Of a stretch of DNA of 64,000 bases, positions 45,860 through 61,739 are shown piece by piece; position 1 is the stretch's first letter, and every line of letters begins with the position of its first letter. The stretch comes from Myxococcus hansupus (GTDB lineage: Bacteria; Myxococcota; Myxococcia; Myxococcales; Myxococcaceae), in assembly GCF_000280925.3 (NCBI RefSeq), contig NZ_CP012109.1, positions 1,860,001-1,924,000 on the forward strand, read 5' to 3'. A program made the translations under genes and the position numbers. The notes below the pieces were generated by a model, which was not told the origin of the DNA, ran no database searches, and was given only the letters and a program-made list of their open reading frames with translations.

Positions 45860-47188
45860 ATGAATCTCGACAGCGCCATCCCCGTCTCCCCCGCGTTGAA
45901 GGCGCTCGCGAAGTCCGCGGAGGACGACGGGCGCGGGGACGAGCCCGCTGTCACGCCGTGCCCCTTCGCTCCGAAGGAGAAGGCGCCGCTGCGCTTCCTG
46001 CTCTGGCACCTCCACCAGCTCGGGGGCGGCTTTCATCGTCCCGTCGTGCGTCCGGACGTCGCCATCGAGGCCTATGCCACGCTCGTGCACCGGTTGAAGC
46101 TCGACATCTGCATCCTCCCGGGGCTGACGCGAACGGTGGGGGCGCGCGCGACCGTCGTGAAGACCGACCTCGCGGGGCGTGTGCAGCTCGTCATGGAGGA
46201 CGCGGTGGAGGACACCGGGGCGCGAGAGGTGCTGCGCATCCTCCAGCAGTTGAAGGACTTGGACCCCAGCGGGGGCTGGCAGGCGCGGTTCCTGACGTCC
46301 GACGTGGATGGGAAGTACGTCTACCTCTCCGACAGCACCACGTGCGTCTTGTTCCGCGGTGCGGAAGGCCTCACCCTCTCCAAGCTCGACGTCGTCGACT
46401 CCCGCCGGGTTCCTTCACTGGGACTGACCGGGAAGCTCCTGTGCGCGACGTTCCAGTCGAAAGCACACGCCGCGGAGCCTGTTCATGTCATGGCCCCGCT
46501 CGGCGCCATCCATGAGGGTGACCTCACGGAGGAGGGCGGGACGGCGCCTCCAACCCCTGCTCCCAAGGCGACCCGCTCCGCGCCTGAGTCATCGCTGGTG
46601 GCCCTCTCCGCGCCAACGGACCTGTTGTCGGACCGGGCTGCCTTCAACCAGTTCCGTTCGGAGATGGAGGCCCTCTACCAGCTTCCTCCCCAGGAGGGGT
46701 CGGTGCTGCGGGACGACCCTTGGAAGTCGATTCCAGAGGCGCAGGCAGGGCTGCTGGCGAACTTCTCCGCCGTGGCGCTCGACAACGTGCTCCTGCAGAA
46801 CGAGCACATGCACTGGGACGCGATGGAGCTTCCCAAGCACCCTGAGAATCTGAAGGAAGTGGCGGGGGCGCTCGCGGACACGCTGCTGCCCTGCTTCGCC
46901 GCGGTGGACGCGCCTCCTCGCGTCGAGGAGCTCCGGGTCGTGGACCTCGTGCGTGCCGCGCTCTCCGCGCAGCGGTTGAGCGTGCTCGACGCCGAGGGCG
47001 AAGCGCGCGGTGACAACCCGCTTCCTTCCGAGGACTCGCTGCTCGTGGGCCCGCGAGAGCGTTTCCAATCCGAGACGGAGCGACCGCCGCGCGAGGCAAC
47101 GCCCGTCAACGAACTGGCGGAGTGCCGCTATTTCAGCGCCGCGCTCTCCACGCACTGGCCTGTCGTCGCGCAACTGCGCTGGCCCTGA
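45860..47188 (+). CDS. Protein with degenerate EEP (DNase I-like) fold
   Basis: 442 residues, unknown family. The order resembles endonuclease/exonuclease/phosphatase proteins: LRFLLWHLHQLGG, KLDICILPGLTRTVG (where LQE is usual), GGWQARFLTSDVDGKYVYL, TTCVLFRGAEGL, LLCATFQSKAHAAEPVHVMAP, NQFRSEMEALYQ, and finally RYFSAALSTHWPVVAQLRW (where SDH-x-P-V is usual). The catalytic Glu is absent (Leu-Pro-Gly), so the enzyme would be inactive. GGAGG sits 4 nt before the ATG. Alternative: a new family of adaptor or immunity for the next protein. Confidence 0.5.
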   Translation: MNLDSAIPVSPALKALAKSAEDDGRGDEPAVTPCPFAPKEKAPLRFLLWHLHQLGGGFHRPVVRPDVAIEAYATLVHRLKLDICILPGLTRTVGARATVVKTDLAGRVQLVMEDAVEDTGAREVLRILQQLKDLDPSGGWQARFLTSDVDGKYVYLSDSTTCVLFRGAEGLTLSKLDVVDSRRVPSLGLTGKLLCATFQSKAHAAEPVHVMAPLGAIHEGDLTEEGGTAPPTPAPKATRSAPESSLVALSAPTDLLSDRAAFNQFRSEMEALYQLPPQEGSVLRDDPWKSIPEAQAGLLANFSAVALDNVLLQNEHMHWDAMELPKHPENLKEVAGALADTLLPCFAAVDAPPRVEELRVVDLVRAALSAQRLSVLDAEGEARGDNPLPSEDSLLVGPRERFQSETERPPREATPVNELAECRYFSAALSTHWPVVAQLRWP

Positions 47189-47211
47189 CCCTCCTTGAGG
47201 CTTCGAGAACC

Positions 47212-50200
47212 ATGGCTCCGTACAAGGCAAACAAGCAGAAGTGGTACACGGAGAAATTCAATTTTCCCTGGCTCGAAGACGGCGGAGACGAGAAGGCCAG
47301 CCTCGTGAAGGAAGAGGTGGGGGAGGTGGAAGGGAAGACAGTCCACCTCACTGTCTTCAAAACCACCTGGGCCTACCGCTTCCAGCATCATCATGGCGTG
47401 GAGACCATCTTCGACCGCATCTTCGGCAGCGGTACCGGCGGCGTCCACGTCACGTTGGAGCTGGGGGATGACGGCGAGGCGAGCGAGGAGGGCATCCACT
47501 GCTACGTCGGCGGTCCGAACCAGGGACGCACCGAAGCGGAAATCTTGGCGTTGCAGGTGTTGCTGGACGCGGAGGTGACGCTGTTGAAGGCAGCCATCCA
47601 GACCGCCCTGACCGAATACGACGAGTTCCAATGGGAGCGCTGTGACAAACCGGACGACGCCTTCGGTTTCCTGGCCTGCGACACCCGCCAGGATGGCTTC
47701 GAGTTGCTCGCGCGCATCGTGTCCGCGCGCCACGGCATGAAGGTGGTGTACCCGTCCCAGTCGGACCTGGCCCTGCTCTGGTCAACGCCTTCGTTGCACC
47801 CCCTGCAAGCGCTGCAGAATTGCCACCAGCGTCTGATTCGCGACGCCGTGCGAGGTCTGACGGCGGATGCGGCCTCGGCGAAGGAGGCCGAGGAGATGGG
47901 GAAGTACTTCTACTTCTCCCCGGGCATCCCGAAGGCCATGGGGTTGGCGAAGGATGCGCCTCCGGACACGCCCGCGGTGCTCGAGCAACTCGAGAGCACC
48001 TTGGCGAAGCTGGAGCGCGAACTGCCCACGCTCCCCAAGGATGTCAGCCCCCCTCACCTGGTGAAGGTCAACGACGCGCTCTGGCTCTTGCGCAAGGCCT
48101 TCGACTTGAGCGTGTCACCAGCGGATACAGCCAGTCCCACGGACCTCAAGATTCGGGCAAAGCGGTATCCGCCACTCGCGGACGTGGAGCGGCAACTCAA
48201 GGGTTTCACGAAGCAAATGGATGCGGCGGCCAAGGAGGACAAGCCCCAGGAGACACTGGAGGCGGTTCGAGCCCGGCTCTCACGCGCGCAGAAGAACCTC
48301 GTCCGCGCACATGCGGGCATGTGCAGCATCCAGAACTTCCACACCATCGAACCGTTCTACCTCTTCCGCCTCCTGGTGAAGTTCCAGGTGCAGTCGGAGA
48401 AGCCCATCGCGGCCGCGGACCGCACGAAGATCAGCAGCTCCCTGACAGGGGGCCTGCACAACAGCCCGCATATGTCCTGGCTCTTCACGTGGCTCCGAGA
48501 CCGGCTGGTGGTCCTGAACGCCGCGCTGGGCAAGGCTTGTTCGAAGAAGGGGCCTGTGTCGGAGAAGTGGCCCGAGGGAGAGCCCGCGGCGGTCTTCTAT
48601 CTCAAGGGGGGGCGGGCGGCGAAGTACCTCCAGGGGCGCGCCACGGAAGGGGAGAATGACTGGGACACGAACATCGTCATCAATCCCAACCTCAAAGCAG
48701 GCGACTGGTACCGGACGTTCCTCGAAGTGCACAACGCGGTGCTCACCTTCCTGGAGGAGTCCAAGCGGCTGTTCGCTGTCCGCGTCCATCAAAGAGATGC
48801 CTACGAAGGGATGACCAAGGCCCTGGCGGCGCTGGACAAGGCGGAGAAGGACCAGCGTGCCAAGGCCCACGAGACGGCCGAGGCAACGGTTGAAAGCCAC
48901 GAAGGGCGGATAACACCGCTGGGCCTCGGTGACGACGTCCTGATTTCCGATGAAGACCAGCGCCTCTATGAAGAGGCCATGAATCAGCTCAAGGCGCTGG
49001 CCCTTTCGGACCGCATGCGCAACGAAGAGACGGGCTCCCTGCTGGAGGAACTGGAGAAGGAGAACTGCAAGGCGGAGCTCATCGACATTGGAATTCCCCG
49101 CCGGGACACCGTGGAGGCCTTCGAGCAGTGGTTCAACGTCTGCTCGCGCGTCATCGTCCGGGAGCAAATCCCCATCCCCGGGCATCTCTATTATCTGGCG
49201 GAGTTCGTGACGATGATTCGCGAGGCCTTCATGGATGCGAGCATCTCCATCCGGAAGATCCCCATCCGGGTGGAGCGGCTGGTGGAGATCCTCATCATGT
49301 TGTCCGCGGACCTCGACGAACTGGTGGCCGAGGAGAAGGCGCACGTCCCGCTGATGTTGGCCTCCTCGGTCTCCGAGGTCGGGAAACTCCCCCTGCACTT
49401 GCGCCGCCTGCTCACGGTCCTCCTCAAGCAGCTCGCGGATGCCTATGAGTTGGCGGAGGACCCCGACCTGGCCAGGTGCTTCGACACGACGTTCAAGACC
49501 GCGCTCCCCCTTCGTGCGGCCAAGGCGACGTATCCCGACGCCTTGAAGAAATCGATCGCCGCGCATGCGCCGTACACCGGTGATGCGAAGAACAAGGAGG
49601 TGGCGGACGCGATTGGTTTCGTCCAGTGGATGGCGGAGACCTATGGCGCGCACCTCAAGAATGCGCGAGCCCAGTTCATCGAGAAGCAGCGCAACTGGTT
49701 CGTCCACTTCATCAAGGCCATCTACACGGGCTCCATCTTCGCGCTGGGCGAAAACCTCCAGGTGCAGTTCGGCGTGACGGGCGCGTTCGCGGCGCAGTTG
49801 CATGCGAAGTACGGGCGGTTCGACCGGATGGCGGAGCTGGAGCCCGTGAAGCGGGTGGACATCAAGCTCTACTGCACGCCAGGGCCAAAGCCGGGCGCCA
49901 AGGTCGATGCGGGCACCGTGCTGGAGCTCATCGAGCCCATCATTGCCACGTACCTCGAGAACACCATGACGAAGGCTCCCCATTACCATCTCATCCGAGG
50001 GGCGCCGGGAACGCTCTACTTCCAATGGCCGGAGGCGGTGAAGTTCGCGGATGGGGTGGAGTACAAGCCCATCGTGATGAAGCTCTCCGTGGAAGCCTGC
50101 GAAGAGAGCTGGCCCCAGTTGGCCTTCATCGATGGGCTGCCGGTCCTCGGACTGAGGGACCTCATCTGGGAATACAAGCGCCGTGCGGGGCACGTGGAGG

Positions 50201-51177
50201 AGACGTTTACCCAGCGCTCCCTGAAGACGGCCATCGACGCGCTGATGGACATCCTGACGCGCTTCGAAACGCCCAGCTCGGAAGAGGCGTGGAGCCCCGC
50301 GCAGAAAGCCCCGGTGGTCGAGCAGCAAGCCTCCCCCCAGGAGGAGGGCGTCTTGGCCCCTGTCGTCGAGGACGTTCCGTGGACGCGCGTGAAGGTGCCA
50401 GGGTTGGACTTCGTTCCGCAGAAGAAGTCCAACTGGTGCTGGGCGGCCACCAGCCTGATGATGCGGAAGTTCTACCTGAAGGACAAAAGCACGCTCGAGG
50501 ACCTCGTGCGGGAGGTCTATTCCGGGCTGGAGGACGAGCAGAGCTCGCTACGCCTCGACCGGCTCAAGCCCAAGGGGAAGGTCGAGGGACGCATCCTTTC
50601 GTGGGAGGACATCAAGGCGCAGCTCGACGCGAAGAAGCCCTTCATCGTTGCCAAGGCCGGGCACTACTGGGTCTGTCATGGCTACGAGGAGCGCCTCGCG
50701 GAGAAGCATCTCCTCTACTGGGACCCCCTGCCCACGGACACCGGCAGGCAGGCTCACATGAACTACGCCCAGTACCAGGCGCACATGTTGGCCGGTGGCG
50801 CCACGGCCCATGATTTCGAGGTAGCGCCCTTGAAGGTGCTCATCCCCTGCGAAATCGACCCGAAGAGCTACAAGCAGGACAGCCAGAAGTTGTACCTGCG
50901 TCCGGTGGTCAACCGGCTCCATGTGGCGAACTCGGAGTTTCGCGTCCGCCACGCCAAGAACTCGAAGGGCGAACTGGGCGCTATCATCAAAACCGTCTCG
51001 TTCATGGGCCTGCCCGCTGAGTTCGAATGGGACATGACCGTGGACCCGGCACACTGGGGCGATAACGTGAAGCGGATGTCCGTCATGCTGGAGGTCGAGG
51101 CGACACTCAACCAGCTCCAGCGCCCTGAACTCCCGGGGAAGACGCAGATTGCCGTCGGCATCGAGAAGCCGGTGTAG
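47212..51177 (+). CDS. 1321-residue putative effector: nucleotidyltransferase-like core plus papain-like cysteine protease
   Basis: Third gene of the operon. Residues 1-450 have no recognised domain (early motif HHHGVETIFDRIF). A nucleotidyltransferase-like core: KGGRAAKYL (Gly466-Gly467) followed by NDWDTNIVINP (Asp483, Asp485), with a candidate third Asp in LIDIGIPRRD (Asp625) after a charged insert of ~120 residues. A helical region (~630-1040) follows. The C-terminal domain (~1060-1200) is papain-like: Gln-rich WCWAATSLMM (Cys1076), AGHYWVCHG (His1151) and LYWDPL (Asp1171) would form the triad, as in C39/C70-type proteases. A strand-rich tail ends it. No signal peptide. Probably an effector delivered by a contact machine; the immunity gene is not obvious. 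Confidence 0.55.
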   Translation: MAPYKANKQKWYTEKFNFPWLEDGGDEKASLVKEEVGEVEGKTVHLTVFKTTWAYRFQHHHGVETIFDRIFGSGTGGVHVTLELGDDGEASEEGIHCYVGGPNQGRTEAEILALQVLLDAEVTLLKAAIQTALTEYDEFQWERCDKPDDAFGFLACDTRQDGFELLARIVSARHGMKVVYPSQSDLALLWSTPSLHPLQALQNCHQRLIRDAVRGLTADAASAKEAEEMGKYFYFSPGIPKAMGLAKDAPPDTPAVLEQLESTLAKLERELPTLPKDVSPPHLVKVNDALWLLRKAFDLSVSPADTASPTDLKIRAKRYPPLADVERQLKGFTKQMDAAAKEDKPQETLEAVRARLSRAQKNLVRAHAGMCSIQNFHTIEPFYLFRLLVKFQVQSEKPIAAADRTKISSSLTGGLHNSPHMSWLFTWLRDRLVVLNAALGKACSKKGPVSEKWPEGEPAAVFYLKGGRAAKYLQGRATEGENDWDTNIVINPNLKAGDWYRTFLEVHNAVLTFLEESKRLFAVRVHQRDAYEGMTKALAALDKAEKDQRAKAHETAEATVESHEGRITPLGLGDDVLISDEDQRLYEEAMNQLKALALSDRMRNEETGSLLEELEKENCKAELIDIGIPRRDTVEAFEQWFNVCSRVIVREQIPIPGHLYYLAEFVTMIREAFMDASISIRKIPIRVERLVEILIMLSADLDELVAEEKAHVPLMLASSVSEVGKLPLHLRRLLTVLLKQLADAYELAEDPDLARCFDTTFKTALPLRAAKATYPDALKKSIAAHAPYTGDAKNKEVADAIGFVQWMAETYGAHLKNARAQFIEKQRNWFVHFIKAIYTGSIFALGENLQVQFGVTGAFAAQLHAKYGRFDRMAELEPVKRVDIKLYCTPGPKPGAKVDAGTVLELIEPIIATYLENTMTKAPHYHLIRGAPGTLYFQWPEAVKFADGVEYKPIVMKLSVEACEESWPQLAFIDGLPVLGLRDLIWEYKRRAGHVEETFTQRSLKTAIDALMDILTRFETPSSEEAWSPAQKAPVVEQQASPQEEGVLAPVVEDVPWTRVKVPGLDFVPQKKSNWCWAATSLMMRKFYLKDKSTLEDLVREVYSGLEDEQSSLRLDRLKPKGKVEGRILSWEDIKAQLDAKKPFIVAKAGHYWVCHGYEERLAEKHLLYWDPLPTDTGRQAHMNYAQYQAHMLAGGATAHDFEVAPLKVLIPCEIDPKSYKQDSQKLYLRPVVNRLHVANSEFRVRHAKNSKGELGAIIKTVSFMGLPAEFEWDMTVDPAHWGDNVKRMSVMLEVEATLNQLQRPELPGKTQIAVGIEKPV

Positions 51178-53022: not shown

Positions 53023-53412
53023 ATGAGAGCCGGGCTTCTGCTGCTGTGTCTTGGGGTGTGCGTGGCGGCGTGTACGCCACAGGTCGAGCCCTCGGTTGTC
53101 GTGGCCCCCGAGGCCGTACCGGAAGGTCGAGTCGTGACGGAGTGGCGGCCCAAGAGCATTCCGTGGGACGGAGTCCCGCGCGCCGTGGGCGAATCCTGTG
53201 TCGAAGGTGGGCACACCTCCTGTGAAAGCGGGCGATGCGTGCACGCTCCGGGCGCGGAGTTGGGCCAGGGCTACTTTTGTACGCGTGCCTGTATCGAGAC
53301 AGCGGAATGCCCGGCCGGCTGGCCCTGCGTGATGTTGGATGCCCATACACGTGAGGGATTGTGCCAGCCCGTGCTGGCCTCCGGCGCGTCGCGGGACGGA
53401 CGCAAGGGCTGA
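53023..53412 (+). CDS. Small Cys-rich lipoprotein
   Basis: 129 residues. Signal peptide and lipobox (LLLLCLGVCVAAC). The mature part holds eight Cys in pairs (SCVEGGHTSCESGRC, YFCTRACIETAEC, GWPCVML, GLCQP), a scheme common in myxobacterial secreted proteins. GAGGAG lies 11 nt before the ATG. It is 54 bp before the Rhs gene and probably co-transcribed; it could act as a partner of the Rhs protein at the outer membrane. Confidence 0.75.
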   Translation: MRAGLLLLCLGVCVAACTPQVEPSVVVAPEAVPEGRVVTEWRPKSIPWDGVPRAVGESCVEGGHTSCESGRCVHAPGAELGQGYFCTRACIETAECPAGWPCVMLDAHTREGLCQPVLASGASRDGRKG

Positions 53413-53466: not shown

Positions 53467-56400
53467 ATGAAAACACAATGGACCCGCCGGGGCGTAGGCG
53501 CCCTGTCGGCGTGTGGGCTGTTGGTGGTGGGGGCAGGGGTCGCCTGGGCATCGAATACACTCAGTGACGCGGAGGTTCAGCAGCGCGTGGACCAGGTGCC
53601 GCTCAGTCCGGCGCCACCGGTGGGGGGCCCCGGTGCCGCGGGTGTCTCCCAGGAGGCCGCGGTGCCAGTGGGGTCGTTGCGCCCGGCCTATCTGGAGACA
53701 GACTTCCAATTGCCTTCGGCGATTGGAGACTTCTCCTTCTCGAGGACCTTCACCGCGTCGACCGAAGCGAACACCCTGGGGGTTGCCGAGAAGCGGCTGA
53801 GCTGGCCCTTCGGTCGGGTGATGAACGCGAACGGGACGAACACCGCCTTTCGCTGGACGCACAGCCTGTACAGCTACGTCTTGCTGGGAGAGGACCGGAA
53901 GCGGGACGGCTCGGGGCTGGATGTCGAAATCACCACCTTCTGCAAGGTCGTGATGCCTTCCGGAGCCAGCCTGCGTTTCAGCCCCTGCGAGAGAAGCCTG
54001 CCGGGCGACTACGAGACGTCCATCAGCGAGCAGGGGACCCGGCTGCGGTGGGACGGGGATGGGTTCACCCTCATCGGTCCGGAGGGACGTTTCCGCTACA
54101 CCCAGTCTGTCTTCGTGGGGGGGCAGACGCAGCCGGTGCTGCCGTACACGCTCTGGAGCAACGCCTACTACCTGACGGAGGTGGAGCCGACGACGTATGG
54201 CACCAGCACGGTCGCGGGCAACGCGGGGCGGCGGCTCATCGCGTCCCTCCAGTACCACACGGCTACGCCCACGGGCTGTACGTCACCGTCGACGACGTTC
54301 GTGAATCCGGCGCACTTGGTGCGCTACGCCACCCTGACGAATGGCTCCCGGCTGGCGTTCTCCTATTCCAGCCTGCCCACGCAGGACACGACACTGACCT
54401 CGACACACGAGTGCGTGCTGGCCAGCGTGGACCTGGAGGAGGGGACGTCCGGTACCGGGTTGGGGACGCGCAACGTGGTGACGTACGACTACGCCATGCA
54501 CGACAGCAGCGAGCAGGTGGTCTCCAGCCCCGCTGGCATGCTGGGCGGTGCGCGTTACGACGTGGGCGTGACGCCCAGCGTGCCGGCCGGTGCCGAGTCA
54601 CCGGTCGCCAAGAGGATGACCTATCGCTGGGTGGACCATGGGGCTTCTCTCGGAACCGTGCGGTGGAAGGTGCTCCGGGATGACGTGCTCGTCTCCAGCA
54701 AGTTGCTGCACCGGGAGCTGGCGCATGTCCTCGAGGACGAGAACCTCTGGACGAAGCAGACCGTCTCCGCGGAGGTGTCCGGCACGGGGCCCTGGTGTGG
54801 TCCGGGCGTGCTGCGCGGCAACTGCGCGGCGTCGCAGAAGCAGGACTTCACGGAGGAGGTCAGCGCGGGGGATGGCTACCTGCTCCCCAAGACGGCGCTG
54901 TCGCGCGCGTTCATCGCGACCCGGTCGCGGACGCACGGGGCGGTCACCACTGGGGCGGAGGTGAAGTGCGGCAAGGATGGCGTCTACAACGACCCCTACT
55001 GCAAGGGGGTGGGCAGGAGCCTCGCGTCGCAGCACTCACGCAGTTGGAGCGTGGATGAGGTCGCGGTCGGAAGCGCGGACCCTCGCTGGGTGGGGATGGC
55101 GAAGTCCCGGAGGGATGCGCGAAACAACCATGCGGTGTTCACGAACGCGCTGGCGGCCCAGGGTGACGCTCCGCGCTCCGCGCTGCCGTGGCAAGCGCTG
55201 TCCGCCTACCTGCCGCCCATGGAGATGCGGACGGCGGCGTTTGGGGCGCTGGACGCGAATGGCACGGGCGCGCTGCTGACGAAGTCGTACACGTACGAGT
55301 ACGGCCGTGCGGGCACCCATGCCGGGTACGAGCAGCAGGTGAAGACGGAGCAGTCGGTGTCCGCCATGGCCAGCCGGGTGGGGGGAGGCGCCCATGCGAC
55401 GTGGACCTACCAATACGAGCCGACGACGAACCGGCTGATGGCCAAGGTTCGCAGCGGCTACACCTGGGACTTCACCACGAGCTTCGGGGCGCCGGTCCTC
55501 AAGCACCTGGCGACCTTCTACCGGACCCATCGCAGGTGTTCCGGGGAGACCGCGGCGAACGCGGACGCTCAGGCCCGTGCGGTGGAAGTCGAAGGGCCGT
55601 GCTGGGTCGGCAGCCCGGGCGCGACCGAGTGCCCCGGCGCCGCACCCATCACGCATTACTTCTACGGGGGCGCCAACGCAGCGAACGGCCAGCAGCAACA
55701 CGTGGTCCTCAAGCGCGTCTTCACGCAGCCCGTCGCGCCGGGGCAATGTGGAACGGCGCCGGCGCTGAACACCTCGTATGACGGCTATGACGACCGGGGA
55801 CGGTTGCTGCGGACGACGGACGCGGCGAACGTGCAGACGCACTACGCCTATGGCGCGGGGAGGCTGGTCCGCAAGACGGTGAAGGCGGGGGCGCTGGCGG
55901 ACCTCATCACCGACTTCGGCTACGACAACGGCGCGCACGGCGATTACGTCCGGCACCCGGACGGCCGCTACGAGGTGCGTTGCTACCGCTCGGGCACGGG
56001 CAGCGCGGGTTGCACGGGGGGAACGCTGACGGACACGTTGCAGTGGAAGGCGACGGCCGCGACGCCCACGGGCACCAATTACAGCGAGCGGGTGAACTAC
56101 ACGTACCGTTCGGGCCGGCTCATCATGGAGGAGACGTTCGCGGCGGGAGGCGTGCTGCGTGCTCGCCGGACCTACGACGCGGACCCGCTGGGACGGGCCA
56201 CGTACCAGGGCTTTGGCGAGCAATGGGGCGAAGGTGCGAGCTGGAACTCCACATACGCGTCGACGAAGCTCTTCGACGCGGAGAACAACCCGATTCGGGA
56301 GGGGCTCCCGTATCTGGCCAGCAATGGCCGTCCGTCCGCCTTCTGCGGGGGCTTCGACACGGCGAACGGCGCGCTGAACGCGCTGCCGCCCGAGTGCCGG

Positions 56401-59400
56401 GCCTTCGAGTACGACCGGCTCAACCGGCTGGTGTCGATGCTGGAGGCAGCGGGCCCCGCGGGAGGTCCGGCCGCGACGGCGACGCATGTCGCCTACGACG
56501 GGGTGGGCAACGTCCGGAGCATCAAGCTGGGGTGCGCGGCGGGCACCACGCTGGACACGTGCGGCAATCAGCCGGCACTGGAGTACCTGCATGACGACTT
56601 CGGCAACCTGCTGGAGGTGAAGGCCCCTTGGGGGGCCGCCGCCACGCCAGGACAGACGCCTTCGGCGGGCCCCAGCGTGGTCCAGTATGCCTATGACGTC
56701 CTGGGCAATCCCCTGGTGAAGCAGACGTCCCGCATGGCCCAGAACGCGAGCTGGACGGCGTACCACTACGACGCGCTGGGACGGCTCCAGTGGGCCGATG
56801 CGCGCCGGAGCTCTCAGGCGGAGCGTCTCTATCAGTATTGGTATGAAGGACAGGTGCCGGCCCCTCCGGCGGGGTGTCCCGCCGCGCGCCCCGGACAGCA
56901 GCACGTGATGGTGGACTCGTTCGGGGCCACGTGGTTCGCATACGACGCCCTGGGGCGCGTGGTCGCGAAGTATCGCGTCCGGGGTGCGCAGACCCAGCCC
57001 CCCTCGCAGGCCTGCAATACCTCGCCCTTCTTCTCCGGGAAGGACAGTCCCAACCACTTCTTCACCTACGACGCCGTCGGCCGGCTGACGGGCGAAATCC
57101 ATCCGTACGGCCGCGGAATCGAGTACCGCTACCACGCGACCAGTTCGGGCATGTCCCACCGGATCAGCGCCATCTACGTGGCGCACCTGTTTCCCGACGG
57201 CGGGACAGGCCATGATCCGCTCATCACCCAGGTGGAGTGGGAGCCCTACGGTGGCGTGAAGGCCTACCGCATCCACTCACGCGGCGAGGCGGGTGTGCCG
57301 GTCGCCGCGCACGTCCGCTATCACCGGGGCGGCGGGAACACGGGCATCACGGACTGCTCCTCGGCTTCGTTCGCGCAGGCGGTGGATGCCGCGGGCGTTC
57401 CCTTCGGACGGTTGTCGGGCCTGAGCGTGAGCCGGACCGTCACGGGGGATGTCTTCAAGCGGGCCTACCGCTATCAGGCGGAGCAGTTGGTGGGAGAGTC
57501 CACCTGTCTCCTCCAGACGTCCAGCGCCCAGCATCCCACCACCCAGGTCTATGAGGGCCCCTCCGGAGAGCCGGGGTACGACGCGCGGCTCCAAGCGCGG
57601 CGTGTGCTGAATCGCCACATGGAGGGCGGCGGGGCTGTCACCGACCGGGCGCTCACCTATGCGTATGACGCCCGCGGCAACCGGACGGCTGAGAGCCACA
57701 ACGGCTTCACGGTGCAGTCGGAATACACCAGCGCGTTCCCCCGGGTGGACCAGCTCGTCACGCGCCGACACGCAGCGCCCGCGTGCCCCGCGGGTCAGGT
57801 CACCTGCCTGCCCTACGGCGTCACGACGCGCTACCTGCATGACATGGCGGGCCGCATGAGCGACGCGTCATGGTTCCTCACCCCGTCGGCCACGCAGCCG
57901 TACTACGCGATGACGCTCAACGCGACGTTGGCCTCTCCCATGGACCTGGGCGCGGTGTACCGCCAGGTCTTGAGCACCCAGGCGGGGGGACCCGGCGTCA
58001 ACTACGAGTACTTCTACGACGCCTCGGGCCGGCGCCGCCTGAAGCGCAGTTGGGATGGCCGGGAGGACGAGTACTTCTATTCGGGCTCGCGGCTGCTGGT
58101 GGACGTGGGGCACGTGGCTTCCAACCCGGCCACGACAGACTACGTGCTCGACGAGTACGTGTGGCTCGACGGGCTCCCGGTCGCGCTCATCAAGTCGCGC
58201 TTCACGCACTCGCCGTTCTTGCGAGTCGCGGACAACACGTCGGATTGCGCTCGCTTCGGCGTGGAGACGGACGTCCCCTGTGGGACGTACTACCCCGTGA
58301 CGGACGGGACGGGGAAGCCGGTCCTCTTGCTGGACTCGAAGGGACGCATCGCCGGAACAGGGGACTACGAGCCGTTTGGCCACGTGAACCGCGTCGTGCA
58401 CCACGCCGCGGCACGGGATGCGTATTCCATGGCCACGCTTCGAGCGCCGGTGAGCCCTGGATTGAAGACCCAGGTCCGAGGGCGCTTCGAGTGGGTCGAA
58501 GCCCACCACCAGGGCCGTGTGTACCTGGGGGATGCCGATGGCGAGAAGCTGCCGGGCCTTCATTCCTGGGATGGAACGGTGTACGGCGGCCCCCTGGGCA
58601 AGGTGGCCTCGGCCGGATGGGTTGACGCCCCCGCGAATGGGACCTTCCACGTCTACATCGGCGTGGACACGCAGGAGCAGACCGCCGTGGAGGCGCACCT
58701 GAGTGGGTTCGAGTACCGGCGCCACGAGCCAGCCACGAAGCCCGTGTGGCTGCCGCTGCGGCTCTCCGGCCAGTACTTCGATGCCGAAACCGACCTGTTC
58801 GAGAATTGGAATCGATACTACGACGCCTCGACAGGCAGGTATCTCGCGCCCGACCCGATTCTCGTCAAGCCAGCGAAGGTCCTCGAGGATGCCTCCGGCG
58901 GCAGGAACACGACGGCCTACGTCTTCGCGAGCAACAACCCGATGGCCTACTCCGACCCGACGGGGCTGCGCGTCGTCGGGTTCGATGATCTGGATGGTGA
59001 TCTGCAGCAGGCCATCATGGCGCTGCGTGAAACCGCCGCGGGGCTCGCTGCCTGGCAACGGCTGGAGGAGTCGAAGACGGTGTTCCAGTTGAAGCAGTCC
59101 GACCTGCCTGGGGGCGTGGCGGGGAAGGTCACGCCCGTGATGCCGACGCCGGCTGCCAGCCATGGCGACGAGGCGCCCGAGGACACCGTCGTGGTCCAGT
59201 TCGACCTCCGGAAGTTCCCGCACAGCAACGCCTTCCTGCGGGCGCTGGACGGACGGCACACCTCCATGGCGAAGAACATCTCACCCGTCTACGTCGTCGC
59301 GCACGAGCTGGCCGGTCATGCGCAGGACTATCTCGGGCCCTCCAGCCAGTGGAAGGTTCCCAAGCCCGGCGCCGAGGATGCGGCCTCCGAGCTCAGAGCG

Positions 59401-59460
59401 GAGTGTGACGCGTCGCGAGTCACAGGGCATCCGCTGACGCCCGCCGCGCAGTGCCCCTAG
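53467..59460 (+). CDS. Sec-exported Rhs/YD-repeat polymorphic toxin
   Basis: 1997 residues. N-terminal signal peptide with twin Arg (TRRGVGALSACGLLVVGAGVAWA). A beta-rich N-terminal domain, then many YD repeats (YDDRGRLLRTTD, YDGVGNVRSI, YDALGRLQW, YDAVGRLTGEI, YDARGNRTAE), and the Rhs core ending NPMAYSDPTGL (Asp1830). The variable C-terminal domain (~1835-1997) carries AHELAGHAQDY (His1946, Glu1947, His1951), a metallopeptidase-like motif with HExxxH spacing. Export by Sec/Tat and not by a PAAR-type N-terminus is notable. No immunity gene is recognised after it; the next gene is convergent. Confidence 0.85.
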   Translation: MKTQWTRRGVGALSACGLLVVGAGVAWASNTLSDAEVQQRVDQVPLSPAPPVGGPGAAGVSQEAAVPVGSLRPAYLETDFQLPSAIGDFSFSRTFTASTEANTLGVAEKRLSWPFGRVMNANGTNTAFRWTHSLYSYVLLGEDRKRDGSGLDVEITTFCKVVMPSGASLRFSPCERSLPGDYETSISEQGTRLRWDGDGFTLIGPEGRFRYTQSVFVGGQTQPVLPYTLWSNAYYLTEVEPTTYGTSTVAGNAGRRLIASLQYHTATPTGCTSPSTTFVNPAHLVRYATLTNGSRLAFSYSSLPTQDTTLTSTHECVLASVDLEEGTSGTGLGTRNVVTYDYAMHDSSEQVVSSPAGMLGGARYDVGVTPSVPAGAESPVAKRMTYRWVDHGASLGTVRWKVLRDDVLVSSKLLHRELAHVLEDENLWTKQTVSAEVSGTGPWCGPGVLRGNCAASQKQDFTEEVSAGDGYLLPKTALSRAFIATRSRTHGAVTTGAEVKCGKDGVYNDPYCKGVGRSLASQHSRSWSVDEVAVGSADPRWVGMAKSRRDARNNHAVFTNALAAQGDAPRSALPWQALSAYLPPMEMRTAAFGALDANGTGALLTKSYTYEYGRAGTHAGYEQQVKTEQSVSAMASRVGGGAHATWTYQYEPTTNRLMAKVRSGYTWDFTTSFGAPVLKHLATFYRTHRRCSGETAANADAQARAVEVEGPCWVGSPGATECPGAAPITHYFYGGANAANGQQQHVVLKRVFTQPVAPGQCGTAPALNTSYDGYDDRGRLLRTTDAANVQTHYAYGAGRLVRKTVKAGALADLITDFGYDNGAHGDYVRHPDGRYEVRCYRSGTGSAGCTGGTLTDTLQWKATAATPTGTNYSERVNYTYRSGRLIMEETFAAGGVLRARRTYDADPLGRATYQGFGEQWGEGASWNSTYASTKLFDAENNPIREGLPYLASNGRPSAFCGGFDTANGALNALPPECRAFEYDRLNRLVSMLEAAGPAGGPAATATHVAYDGVGNVRSIKLGCAAGTTLDTCGNQPALEYLHDDFGNLLEVKAPWGAAATPGQTPSAGPSVVQYAYDVLGNPLVKQTSRMAQNASWTAYHYDALGRLQWADARRSSQAERLYQYWYEGQVPAPPAGCPAARPGQQHVMVDSFGATWFAYDALGRVVAKYRVRGAQTQPPSQACNTSPFFSGKDSPNHFFTYDAVGRLTGEIHPYGRGIEYRYHATSSGMSHRISAIYVAHLFPDGGTGHDPLITQVEWEPYGGVKAYRIHSRGEAGVPVAAHVRYHRGGGNTGITDCSSASFAQAVDAAGVPFGRLSGLSVSRTVTGDVFKRAYRYQAEQLVGESTCLLQTSSAQHPTTQVYEGPSGEPGYDARLQARRVLNRHMEGGGAVTDRALTYAYDARGNRTAESHNGFTVQSEYTSAFPRVDQLVTRRHAAPACPAGQVTCLPYGVTTRYLHDMAGRMSDASWFLTPSATQPYYAMTLNATLASPMDLGAVYRQVLSTQAGGPGVNYEYFYDASGRRRLKRSWDGREDEYFYSGSRLLVDVGHVASNPATTDYVLDEYVWLDGLPVALIKSRFTHSPFLRVADNTSDCARFGVETDVPCGTYYPVTDGTGKPVLLLDSKGRIAGTGDYEPFGHVNRVVHHAAARDAYSMATLRAPVSPGLKTQVRGRFEWVEAHHQGRVYLGDADGEKLPGLHSWDGTVYGGPLGKVASAGWVDAPANGTFHVYIGVDTQEQTAVEAHLSGFEYRRHEPATKPVWLPLRLSGQYFDAETDLFENWNRYYDASTGRYLAPDPILVKPAKVLEDASGGRNTTAYVFASNNPMAYSDPTGLRVVGFDDLDGDLQQAIMALRETAAGLAAWQRLEESKTVFQLKQSDLPGGVAGKVTPVMPTPAASHGDEAPEDTVVVQFDLRKFPHSNAFLRALDGRHTSMAKNISPVYVVAHELAGHAQDYLGPSSQWKVPKPGAEDAASELRAECDASRVTGHPLTPAAQCP

Positions 59461-59471
59461 GTTGAACAGGA

Positions 59472-59501
59472 CAGGGGCGGTGCGGGTTGGCACCGCCCCT
59501 G
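59472..59501 (+). terminator. Rhs gene terminator hairpin
   Basis: Perfect 12-bp arms CAGGGGCGGTGC / GCACCGCCCCTG, loop GGGTTG, 12 nt after the Rhs stop. Confidence 0.75.
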
Positions 59502-59529
59502 GGCCTTCATTGCCTTCCTGGGCCGCGGA

Positions 59530-59581: not shown

Positions 59582-61435
59582 CTACTCCACGCGCAGGCAC
59601 TTCGCCGGGCCGAACGTGGCCGCGTAGTACGGCGTGTAGAGGTCGGGCCCGAGCGTGAAGTTGCAGGTGTTCACCTCGTCCGGCGACAGACCCGGGTTCT
59701 CCTGCAGGTAACGCGCGACATAGTCCCGCACGCCATCCGCGGACGTCCACAGCACGCGGCCTTCCCGGAACATGCTGTACCCGCCACCGCCACCCGCGCG
59801 GTAGTTGTTGATGGCGATGATGAACACCTGGTCGTCGGTGACGTCATTGCCCTTGAAGCGCAGGTGCGTGGTCCGCGAGCCCGCGGGCTGCGTGAGGTCG
59901 TACCCGTACTCGATGTGCGAATACAGGTCCCAGTTGTAGTCCGCGACCGCGGGCGCGGTGGCCTTGGCCTCCGCGGGCGTCGCCGGCAGGTTGTCCGGGT
60001 TGATGGTGGTGAAGTAGTTGGCGTTCATCTCCACCGCGCGCCGCAGGATGGAGCCGTTGATCTCCATCACATACAGCGTGTTGTCGTAGATGTAGATGCT
60101 GTACGCATCACGCAGGGTGACGTCCCCAGCGGGCAGTGAGACATCGTTGGTGAAGATGGCGCCCAGGGACAGGTCCACTTCGAAGCCCGCCTCGAGCGCG
60201 GCCTGCTCCTGCACGATGTTGATGAGGTCGCCCAGCGGGCCGTCCACGTAACGCCCGGCGAAGCCGCCCGGGAACACGCCGGTGGTGGTGCCAATCTTCT
60301 GATTCACATAGGCGACCGTGGTGTCGTGGTAGGCCTGGGTGCTCTGGGTGACGGCGGCATCCTCCTCCACCGTGTCGTCCACGACGTGGAGTCGGGCGTC
60401 ATGGGTGTTCACGCCCCAGCGCTCGCCATCCCAGGTGACCTGGAGCTGGACGTCGGCCAGGTGGCTGCCCCAGCGGTTGGGCTGCGTGAGGAGGACCTCT
60501 CCGCCGTCCACGTTCCGCAGCAGCATCTTCGGAATGGGCTGATGCGTGTGGCCGGTGAGGAGCACGTCCACGCCGGGCACCTGCTGGGCAATCTGGACGG
60601 CCTGGTTCTCCCCGGGGAGGTTGCCCCGGTCCGCCCACTTCGAATCATCCGCGTAGTCCACCAGCCACGACTCGGGGTTGCTCGCGCTGCCCGTGGGCTG
60701 CCGGTCGGGGCCGCTGTGGATGGCCACCACCACGACGTCCGCGCCGGCCTCCTTCATCCGCGGCACGTAGTCCAACGCGGTCTGCAGCGGGTCATCGAAG
60801 CGCAGGCCGACGATGTTCTCCGGGCGCTCCCACGTCGTCACGCCGGGGGTCACCAGGCCGAGGATGCCGACCTTCACGTCGCACACCGTCTGGATGACGT
60901 AGGGGGTGAAGGCCTCGGAGCCGTCCGCGCTGTTGCGGACGTTGGCGCCGAGGAGGGGGAAGTTCACCTCGCTCTTGAACTTGTTGAGGACGTCCAGGCC
61001 GAAGTTGAACTCATGGTTGCCCAGCGCCATGGCGGTGTAGCCCAGCTCGTTCATGGCCGTGGCCATGGGGTGCTTGGGCGTGTTGTCCACGAGGGCATAG
61101 TAGGTGCCCAGCGGCGTGCCTTGGATGGTGTCGCCGGTGTCGAAGAGCAACGTGCAGTCCGGATTCTTCGCTCGCTCCTGCTTGACGAGCGTGGCCACCT
61201 TGGCGATGCCGCGCCTCGCGTCGGGCCTCCCGGAGAAGTAGTCCCACGGGAAGATGTTCGTGTGCAGGTCGCTCGTCTGGAGCAGGGTCAGGGTGCGGGG
61301 TGTGGTGTCGCGCGGCGGGGGCTCGTTGCCGGGCCCAGGCTCTTCGCTGGAGTCGCAGGCCGTGAGCAGCGAGCACGCGCCCACGAGGCAAAGGGAAGTC
61401 ATGCGCAGCGAGCGCGCCCAGACAGGAAAACGCAT
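59582..61435 (-). CDS. 5'-nucleotidase / cyclic phosphodiesterase lipoprotein
   Basis: 617 residues. Lipobox LLTAC after the signal peptide. The metallophosphatase domain has all motif blocks: TSDLHTNIF, FDTGDTIQGTPLG, ALGNHEFNFGLD, VVAIHSGP, TGHTHQP. The C-terminal 5'-nucleotidase domain (~360-600) has GDLINIVQEQAAL, FTNDVSLPAGDVTLRDAYSIYIYDNTLY and NNYRAGGGGGY (substrate-stacking region). Hydrolyses extracellular nucleotides or 2',3'-cyclic nucleotides for scavenging. GAGG is 7 nt before the ATG. Confidence 0.92.
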   Translation of the reverse strand: MRFPVWARSLRMTSLCLVGACSLLTACDSSEEPGPGNEPPPRDTTPRTLTLLQTSDLHTNIFPWDYFSGRPDARRGIAKVATLVKQERAKNPDCTLLFDTGDTIQGTPLGTYYALVDNTPKHPMATAMNELGYTAMALGNHEFNFGLDVLNKFKSEVNFPLLGANVRNSADGSEAFTPYVIQTVCDVKVGILGLVTPGVTTWERPENIVGLRFDDPLQTALDYVPRMKEAGADVVVVAIHSGPDRQPTGSASNPESWLVDYADDSKWADRGNLPGENQAVQIAQQVPGVDVLLTGHTHQPIPKMLLRNVDGGEVLLTQPNRWGSHLADVQLQVTWDGERWGVNTHDARLHVVDDTVEEDAAVTQSTQAYHDTTVAYVNQKIGTTTGVFPGGFAGRYVDGPLGDLINIVQEQAALEAGFEVDLSLGAIFTNDVSLPAGDVTLRDAYSIYIYDNTLYVMEINGSILRRAVEMNANYFTTINPDNLPATPAEAKATAPAVADYNWDLYSHIEYGYDLTQPAGSRTTHLRFKGNDVTDDQVFIIAINNYRAGGGGGYSMFREGRVLWTSADGVRDYVARYLQENPGLSPDEVNTCNFTLGPDLYTPYYAATFGPAKCLRVE

Positions 61436-61739
61436 CAGGAAACCTCTACGGAGTGGAATGCCGGGAAGAATCTCCCAGTCGCGAGACACCCTAACTCACG
61501 GGTCTGTCATCGCCGTTACGCGATTGTTGCAAAGCCCCGCGGTGGCGCCCCGTGCCTCGGCGCCCTGATGACGATTCAGAGACTCTCGTACTTCGGGAGT
61601 TCAATGTCTTGGAAAGACAGGCTCATGCGCTTGGAATCTCATGTGGTAAGAGTCAGCGGGGCGCACTTTTCGTCTCGGTGTTGTTCACTGAGGGCGCGCC
61701 CCGTTGATTCACCTTCATCCGCGCGCGTGACTTCGGCCG
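61436..61739. other. Intergenic region with a small hairpin
   Basis: 304 bp; less GC-rich near 61570-61650. TGTCTT-gga-AAGACA is a perfect hairpin at 61605-61619, about 120 nt past the acetyltransferase stop, possibly its terminator or part of the nucleotidase promoter. No gene seen. Confidence 0.4.

What the first reader, a model, noticed from the sequence alone, without database searches (positions are those of the whole stretch)
53467..59460. Signal-peptide Rhs toxin with HELAGH C-terminal domain and no immunity gene
Rhs proteins usually rely on PAAR N-termini or insecticidal-complex partners; this one begins with a Sec/Tat signal peptide. The C-terminal HELAGH has HExxxH spacing, unlike HExxH. 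The next gene is convergent and not immunity-like.
Basis: partly seen in the sequence, partly recalled or inferred. Interest (0 to 1): 0.55.

Follow-up and report, generated by a model that had tools for sequence, protein, structure and literature searches.

The report
Exported Rhs toxin, altered zinc site
A soil myxobacterium carries a giant exported toxin-delivery protein whose protease-like warhead has one residue too many in its zinc-binding motif and lacks the protective partner gene that its relatives carry, so it is probably a disarmed version of a common weapon family.

Summary
In detail: window 53467-59460 is an intact 1,997-residue Rhs protein with a signal peptide, an Rhs core ending in SDPTG, and a 163-residue tip with HELAGH; the next gene is convergent. 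A signal peptide is normal for large myxobacterial Rhs proteins. The gene belongs to a conserved unit: a cysteine-rich lipoprotein gene directly upstream, then the Rhs gene (57 of 60 fetched non-seed lipoprotein loci). Tips vary. Of 61 tails read (window plus 60 relatives), 18 have canonical HExxH; the window alone has HExxxH. The tips that align best with it read HELGH, HEAYH and HELGH, with a gap inside the motif. 17 of the 18 HExxH loci have an exported-looking ORF next, against 17% of random positions, as expected for immunity to a periplasmic protease. Decayed relatives of the window tip in three same-genus genomes sit directly before a homologous lipoprotein gene, the likely cognate immunity; the window genome gave no match to it. 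Best reading: a zinc-peptidase tip with an altered active site that lost its immunity gene, probably disarmed. An active dipeptidyl-peptidase-III-like HExxxH site is not excluded; no usable structure model was obtained.

The parts
53023..53412 (+). Cys-rich lipoprotein gene, partner of the Rhs gene (129 aa; lipobox Cys17 plus 8 further invariant Cys)
   Evidence: Alignment A2 of 9 such proteins; 57 of 60 non-seed loci of this family have an Rhs gene downstream on the same strand
53467..59460 (+). Signal-peptide Rhs protein, 1,997 aa
53467..53550 (+). Signal peptide, residues 1-28 (cleavage after AWA by inspection)
   Evidence: sequence; same kind of N-terminus in relatives
58753..58968 (+). 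Rhs-associated core, residues 1763-1834, ending SDPTGL at the tip junction
   Evidence: NCBIfam TIGR03696, E=2.8e-14
58969..59457 (+). C-terminal tip, residues 1835-1997, divergent zincin-like peptidase domain
59302..59319 (+). HELAGH motif, residues 1946-1951 (HExxxH; relatives HExxH)
59389..59406 (+). ELRAEC, residues 1975-1980, candidate third-ligand motif (ExxA[DE])
   Evidence: aligned with ELEADC (decayed relative), EEWAD (L108), EQQAD (L138); YpfJ proteins have ELQADC at a similar place
59472..59501 (+). 12-bp G+C-rich hairpin just after the Rhs stop; possible transcript end, no T tract
   Evidence: fold z=-4.22 for 59459-59520; the terminator pattern scan found none
59582..61489 (-). 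Convergent 5'-nucleotidase / metallophosphoesterase gene, not immunity-like
   Evidence: PF02872 E=7.5e-25, PF00149 E=2.1e-13

Best explanation
The window holds one copy of a myxobacterial two-gene toxin unit: a Cys-rich lipoprotein and a Sec-exported Rhs protein that most likely sits at the cell surface as a cage and releases a variable C-terminal tip into neighbours. In many relatives the tip is followed by an immunity-like gene. A frequent tip type is a minimal zinc peptidase with HExxH and an exported-looking immunity protein, which points to action in the target's periplasm. In this copy the tip is a divergent member of that type, but its motif is HELAGH, one residue longer than in the tips that align best with it, and the lipoprotein gene that follows decayed copies of the same tip is missing. 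The simplest mechanism is that the active site was altered so that the tip no longer kills, after or together with loss of the immunity gene. Shown by sequence: the unit, the tip homology, the motif difference and the missing gene. Inferred: surface display, periplasmic action, the immunity function, loss of activity and the order of events.
For: Unit: 57 of 60 non-seed lipoprotein loci have an Rhs gene starting within 1,000 nt downstream on the same strand (misses L135, L137, L142, of which L137 and L142 are short stretches cut by contig ends). An earlier set of 30 of 30 holds 8 seed loci and 21 of the same 60. Tip: NCBIfam YpfJ zinc peptidase model E=4.5e-4 at residues 88-133 of the tip; own YpfJ model 14.8 bits against a best of 5.8 for 2,000 shuffles (1,616 reported), and 1.0 with HELAGH masked. 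Best of 60 tails by local alignment, against 400 shuffles: L108 score 74 (shuffle maximum 46), L138 score 63 (maximum 52), L093 score 53 (reached by 1 of 400); all three align with a one-residue gap inside the motif. Family norm: 18 HExxH tails and one HExxxH (the window) in 61. Immunity: 17 of 18 HExxH loci have an exported- or membrane-looking same-strand ORF starting -45 to +110 nt from the Rhs stop, against 23 of 42 other tails and 17% of 1,220 random positions (exception L092). Decayed copies of the window tip with an adjacent homologous lipoprotein: G125, G121, G134. No match to that lipoprotein in the window's genome.
Against: HExxxH can be a working zinc site: dipeptidyl peptidase III uses HELLGH, and its HExxH deletion form also has activity (PMC3268031, passages). 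The long Rhs frame is intact. In the tip's flanks (71 codons) pN=0.22 against pS=0.76 relative to the decayed relative, so the tip was constrained for much of its history. To YpfJ the tip aligns without a gap at the motif, which would make the change a His-to-Gly substitution rather than an insertion. L108 and L138, the two best matches, do not match each other's tips significantly (score 38, shuffle maximum 45 of 500). The mechanical downstream-ORF test is weak: 48 of 61 loci pass, the window among them through an antisense frame, against 39% of 1,220 random positions; coding-like composition 18 of 61 against 15%. Five shorter Rhs proteins of the family also lack an immunity gene, but they have no tip. 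The second genome search for the lipoprotein scored only 17 of 61 first-look candidates in G000.
Confidence: 0.52

Rival explanations
1. The tip is active with an M49-like HExxGH zinc site (His, His and the Glu of ELRAE). It needs no immunity gene because it acts on distant prey or on a target absent from the producer.
For: HELAGH fits HExxGH and SELRAE resembles EExRAE of dipeptidyl peptidase III (second motif recalled; HELLGH-aa52-E as zinc site in PMC3268031 passages). Toxins of the PVC secretion system often lack immunity genes, which the authors take as possible action on distant organisms (PMC3482391, passages). Low pN relative to pS in the flanks.
Against: No M49 family match. The spacing from the second His to Glu is 23 residues, against 52. 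The best-aligning tips have HExxH and exported-looking downstream ORFs. Decayed copies of this tip have an adjacent lipoprotein.
Confidence: 0.25
2. The tip is active and immunity is provided from elsewhere in the genome, for instance by cross-protection from the lipoprotein beside the HEAYH tip in the same genome.
For: The genome carries another tip that aligns with this one (L138, C1:2078751) and has its own lipoprotein gene 12 nt downstream. A Myxococcus paper on crosstalk between toxin-immunity homologues exists (PMC12077131, title and start of abstract in a listing).
Against: No homologue of the candidate cognate lipoprotein found in G000. The L138 lipoprotein scores only 39 against a shuffle mean of 29 +- 5 with it. 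The two tips are very divergent.
Confidence: 0.13
3. The tip is not a peptidase at all; HELAGH is incidental and the tip is structural or acts another way.
For: Both structure models are unusable (pLDDT 45 and 38); no Pfam or NCBIfam model reaches its cut-off in the tip. A tipless Rhs subgroup without adjacent immunity exists in the family (L111, L141, L143, L145, L146).
Against: The match to the YpfJ model depends on the motif region, and the alignments to HExxH tips run through it; a third-ligand-like ExxA[DE] motif is kept.
Confidence: 0.1

Closest known systems
Large signal-peptide Rhs proteins of Myxococcus xanthus (for example Rhs4, Rhs5), kin discrimination
   Same: Over 1,500 aa, signal peptide, YD repeats, polymorphic C-terminal tip (PMC10433427, passages)
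   Different: About 2,000 aa here against about 4,000 for Rhs4/5; an upstream Cys-rich lipoprotein, which the passages I read do not mention; no adjacent immunity gene in this copy
WapA of Bacillus subtilis
   Same: Rhs/YD protein active in antagonism (named in PMC10433427); signal peptide and toxic C-terminus recalled
   Different: Gram-positive wall context, tRNase tip, adjacent WapI (recalled)
YpfJ / KPN_02809 neutral zinc peptidase (PF04228, NF050010)
   Same: YVVAHE...LG segment and ELxA[DE]C motif
   Different: HExGHH there; in the ungapped alignment the tip has Gly where YpfJ has the second ligand His; the tip is far below the family cut-offs
Tox-MPTase toxin domains and VgrG2b zinc-peptidase effector
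   Same: Peptidase tips of polymorphic toxins, HExxH (PMC3482391 passages); VgrG2b acts in the periplasm and has a cognate immunity protein (PMC6899460 abstract)
   Different: Canonical HExxH in the Tox-MPTases; no family match for this tip
Dipeptidyl peptidase III (M49)
   Same: HExxGH motif and a Glu third ligand (PMC3268031 passages)
   Different: A 723-738-residue peptidase with a 52-residue spacer; no family match here

Membership tests
Rhs polymorphic toxin | YD/RHS repeats and Rhs core | tested here: met
Rhs polymorphic toxin | Variable C-terminal tip after DPxG | tested here: met
Rhs polymorphic toxin | Immunity gene directly downstream | tested here: not met
   Convergent 5'-nucleotidase; candidate lipoprotein not found in G000
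T6SS PAAR-Rhs effector | PAAR domain | tested here: not met
   No PAAR match at E<=1 in Pfam
Myxobacterial signal-peptide Rhs (lipoprotein + Rhs unit) | Signal peptide and upstream Cys-rich lipoprotein | tested here: met
   signal peptide by inspection only
Myxobacterial signal-peptide Rhs (lipoprotein + Rhs unit) | Kin discrimination activity | not testable with these tools
   needs competition assays
HExxH zincin toxin tip | HExxH | tested here: not met
   HELAGH
HExxH zincin toxin tip | Homology to HExxH tips and third-ligand ExxA[DE] | tested here: met
   L108 and L138 above all 400 shuffles; third motif in the multiple alignment
HExxH zincin toxin tip | Zincin fold with metal site | tested here: inconclusive
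   AF2 pLDDT 45 and 38
YpfJ (NF050010 / PF04228) | Score over the curated cut-off | tested here: not met
   19.9 against 250 bits; 11.9 against 23.2 bits
M49 dipeptidyl peptidase III | HExxGH and EExRAE with about 52-residue spacing | tested here: not met
   HELAGH fits, SELRAE partly, spacing 23; no Pfam match

The most novel reading that the evidence does not exclude
The Cys-rich lipoprotein is a dedicated export or surface-anchoring partner of signal-peptide Rhs proteins across the Myxococcaceae: a two-partner toxin-delivery system that I did not find described. Within it the window tip may be a natural HExxH-to-HExxxH shift that kept activity while escaping the need for its immunity protein.
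Probability: 0.3. Interest if true: 0.72.

Novelty: new variant of a known kind. Interest (0 to 1): 0.5.

Why it matters
How signal-peptide Rhs giants reach the surface of Gram-negative cells is, to my knowledge, open. A near-invariant lipoprotein partner gives a gene to delete. The family's many small zinc-peptidase tips with exported-looking downstream genes point to periplasmic proteolysis as a common myxobacterial weapon. The window copy, with an altered zinc motif and no immunity gene, beside decayed copies whose neighbouring lipoprotein gene is still there, is a natural case for how toxin-immunity pairs come apart, and for whether HExxxH can arise in a working zincin.

Tried and rejected
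Tip searches in plasmids and phages: no match. Two genome-contig scans: the first found nothing, the second only the known decayed copy. One viral-contig scan: nothing. AF2 models of the tip alone and with one relative: pLDDT 45 and 38, not used for any fold search. Solved-structure search with the tip: no hit. The weak own-genome hit L002 (E=0.7) lies in an ORF that looks like an exonuclease gene (by reading) and was dropped. The 225-aa downstream ORF (TTG 59462) is antisense to the 5'-nucleotidase and was rejected as coding. A Rhs N-terminal model alone found Rhs in 39 of 60 loci; a core-end model was added, giving 57 of 60. The 60 were chosen down the E-value list (to about 8e-22), leaving out the seeds, one copy already in hand (L035) and two hits at contig starts (G075). 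Nine of 70 loci (L127, L128, L133, L135, L137, L142, L143, L148, L149) were left out of the tail counts because no Rhs end was read by the rule used; L127 showed an HExxH in a broken frame and is not counted. Weak lipoprotein matches (above about 1e-9 mostly) lie in longer frames and were not counted as the partner. Literature: 7 answered full-text searches and one that failed (failed 82); I saw no description of the lipoprotein partner in the listings or in the passages read. Passages, not whole papers, were seen of PMC10433427, PMC13018210, PMC13310138, PMC10047993, PMC3268031 and PMC3482391; of PMC6899460 the abstract and outline.
Full report
Observation. Window 53467-59460 (+) encodes 1,997 residues without a stop. 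It has RHS repeats and an Rhs-associated core at 1763-1834, then a 163-residue tip. The N-terminus is a signal peptide by inspection. HELAGH lies at residues 1946-1951, and a candidate third-ligand motif ELRAEC at 1975-1980. The next gene is a convergent 5'-nucleotidase. A 12-bp hairpin follows the Rhs stop; the pattern scan found no T-tract terminator.

The host. In the passages I read, large signal-peptide Rhs proteins are an established class, and two Rhs proteins of M. xanthus act in kin discrimination independently of T6SS (PMC10433427; Rhs as a third kin-discrimination system also in PMC10047993). The signal peptide is therefore not the anomaly.

A conserved partner. Eight Rhs relatives in other genomes of the genus, found with the Rhs N-terminus, have a small Cys-rich lipoprotein gene just upstream, as has the window. 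A search of 195 genomes with the alignment of these nine proteins matched 94 genomes at E<=1e-5; many of the weaker matches lie in longer frames and are probably other Cys-rich proteins. Of the loci fetched automatically, 30 of 30 had an Rhs gene downstream, but 8 of these are the seeds themselves. Of 60 larger non-seed regions, which include 21 of those 30, 57 had Rhs on the same strand starting within 1,000 nt of the lipoprotein gene. The papers searched showed me no description of this partner.

Tips and immunity. Of 70 loci (window, 9, and 60), 61 gave a readable Rhs tail. In 18 the tail has HExxH within 90 residues of the end; 300 rounds of shuffling give a mean of 0.11 and a maximum of 2. 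The window is the only HExxxH. By a crude hydrophobicity and lipobox rule, 17 of the 18 HExxH loci have an exported- or membrane-looking same-strand ORF starting -45 to +110 nt from the Rhs stop; L092 does not. The same rule gives 23 of 42 for the other tails and 17% of 1,220 random positions. Other tips include an Ntox47 domain and a nucleotidyltransferase, 2 of 9 tips scanned; the other 7 matched no family at its cut-off. A test for any downstream ORF, without the export rule, is met in 48 of 61 loci (the window among them, through an antisense frame) and at 39% of 1,220 random positions, so by itself it is only moderate evidence. Five Rhs proteins of about 1,400 residues (L111, L141, L143, L145, L146) end soon after the core without a tip, so absence of immunity is not unique to the window; but the window does have a tip.

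The window tip. It matches the YpfJ zinc peptidase model at E=4.5e-4 (0.011 when the whole Rhs protein is the query) and an own model at 14.8 bits, above the best of 2,000 shuffles (5.8), and the match depends on the HELAGH segment. Among 60 tails it aligns best to L108 (score 74 over about 113 residues, shuffle maximum 46 of 400), L138 in its own genome (63, maximum 52) and L093 (53, reached by 1 of 400 shuffles, so not significant after picking from 60). In all three the gap falls inside the zinc motif: HELAGH against HELGH, HEAYH, HELGH. Against YpfJ the alignment is ungapped at the motif, with Gly at the canonical second His and His one place later. L108 and L138 have homologous downstream lipoproteins (score 90, shuffle maximum 58 of 500), but their tips do not match each other significantly (38, maximum 45).

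Close copies. Only decayed copies of the window tip were found: a 72-residue frame in G125 that lacks residues 35-125 of the tip and short C-terminal pieces in G121 (with a stop) and G134. Each is followed at once by a homologous lipoprotein; in G125 the tip's stop and the lipoprotein's start overlap. G121 and G134 have the same neighbouring gene and look like one ancestral locus, so these are two independent cases. A further lipoprotein homologue lies in G062, where no tip match was found at E<=0.001. None was found in the window's genome at E<=0.01.

Mechanism. Most likely the unit exports an Rhs cage to the surface and the tip is a small protease acting in the target's periplasm, countered by an exported immunity protein. 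In this copy the active-site motif is altered and the immunity gene is gone, so the tip is probably disarmed. The main rival is a working HExxxH site as in dipeptidyl peptidase III, where HExxxH and an HExxH deletion form both work (PMC3268031 passages). No usable structure model could be made, so sequence cannot decide.

Novelty. Rhs signal-peptide toxins, peptidase tips and immunity loss are known kinds. The lipoprotein partner, the abundance of HExxH tips in this family, and the HExxxH variant without immunity are, as far as my searches go, new.

Noticed in passing
G000:C1:2078500-2088700 (L138): Another lipoprotein-Rhs unit in the same genome, with an HEAYH tip that aligns with the window tip and its own Cys-rich lipoprotein 12 nt downstream.
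   Followed up: partly
G000:C1:4488000-4497000 (L035): A further lipoprotein-Rhs unit in the same genome with the Rhs frame broken into at least two ORFs; tip and downstream ORF remain.
   Followed up: no
L111, L141, L143, L145, L146: Shorter Rhs proteins (about 1,400 aa) with the same lipoprotein partner and no toxin-like tip; one is in the window's own genome (L146). Possibly a conserved non-toxic subgroup.
   Followed up: partly
L003 and L014 (G125:C21 and C16 ends): The candidate immunity gene of G125 is split over two contig ends that seem to carry the same end sequence, as if a mobile element had entered it.
   Followed up: no
   Followed up: no
L122, L126: Two Rhs tips with JAMM-like HTH...D motifs (motif recalled), another metal-dependent peptidase type in the same family.
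   Followed up: no
window 47122-51177: 1,351-aa protein with a weak C39/AvrRpt2-like peptidase match near its C-terminus (PF13529 E=3e-4, below the cut-off).
   Followed up: no
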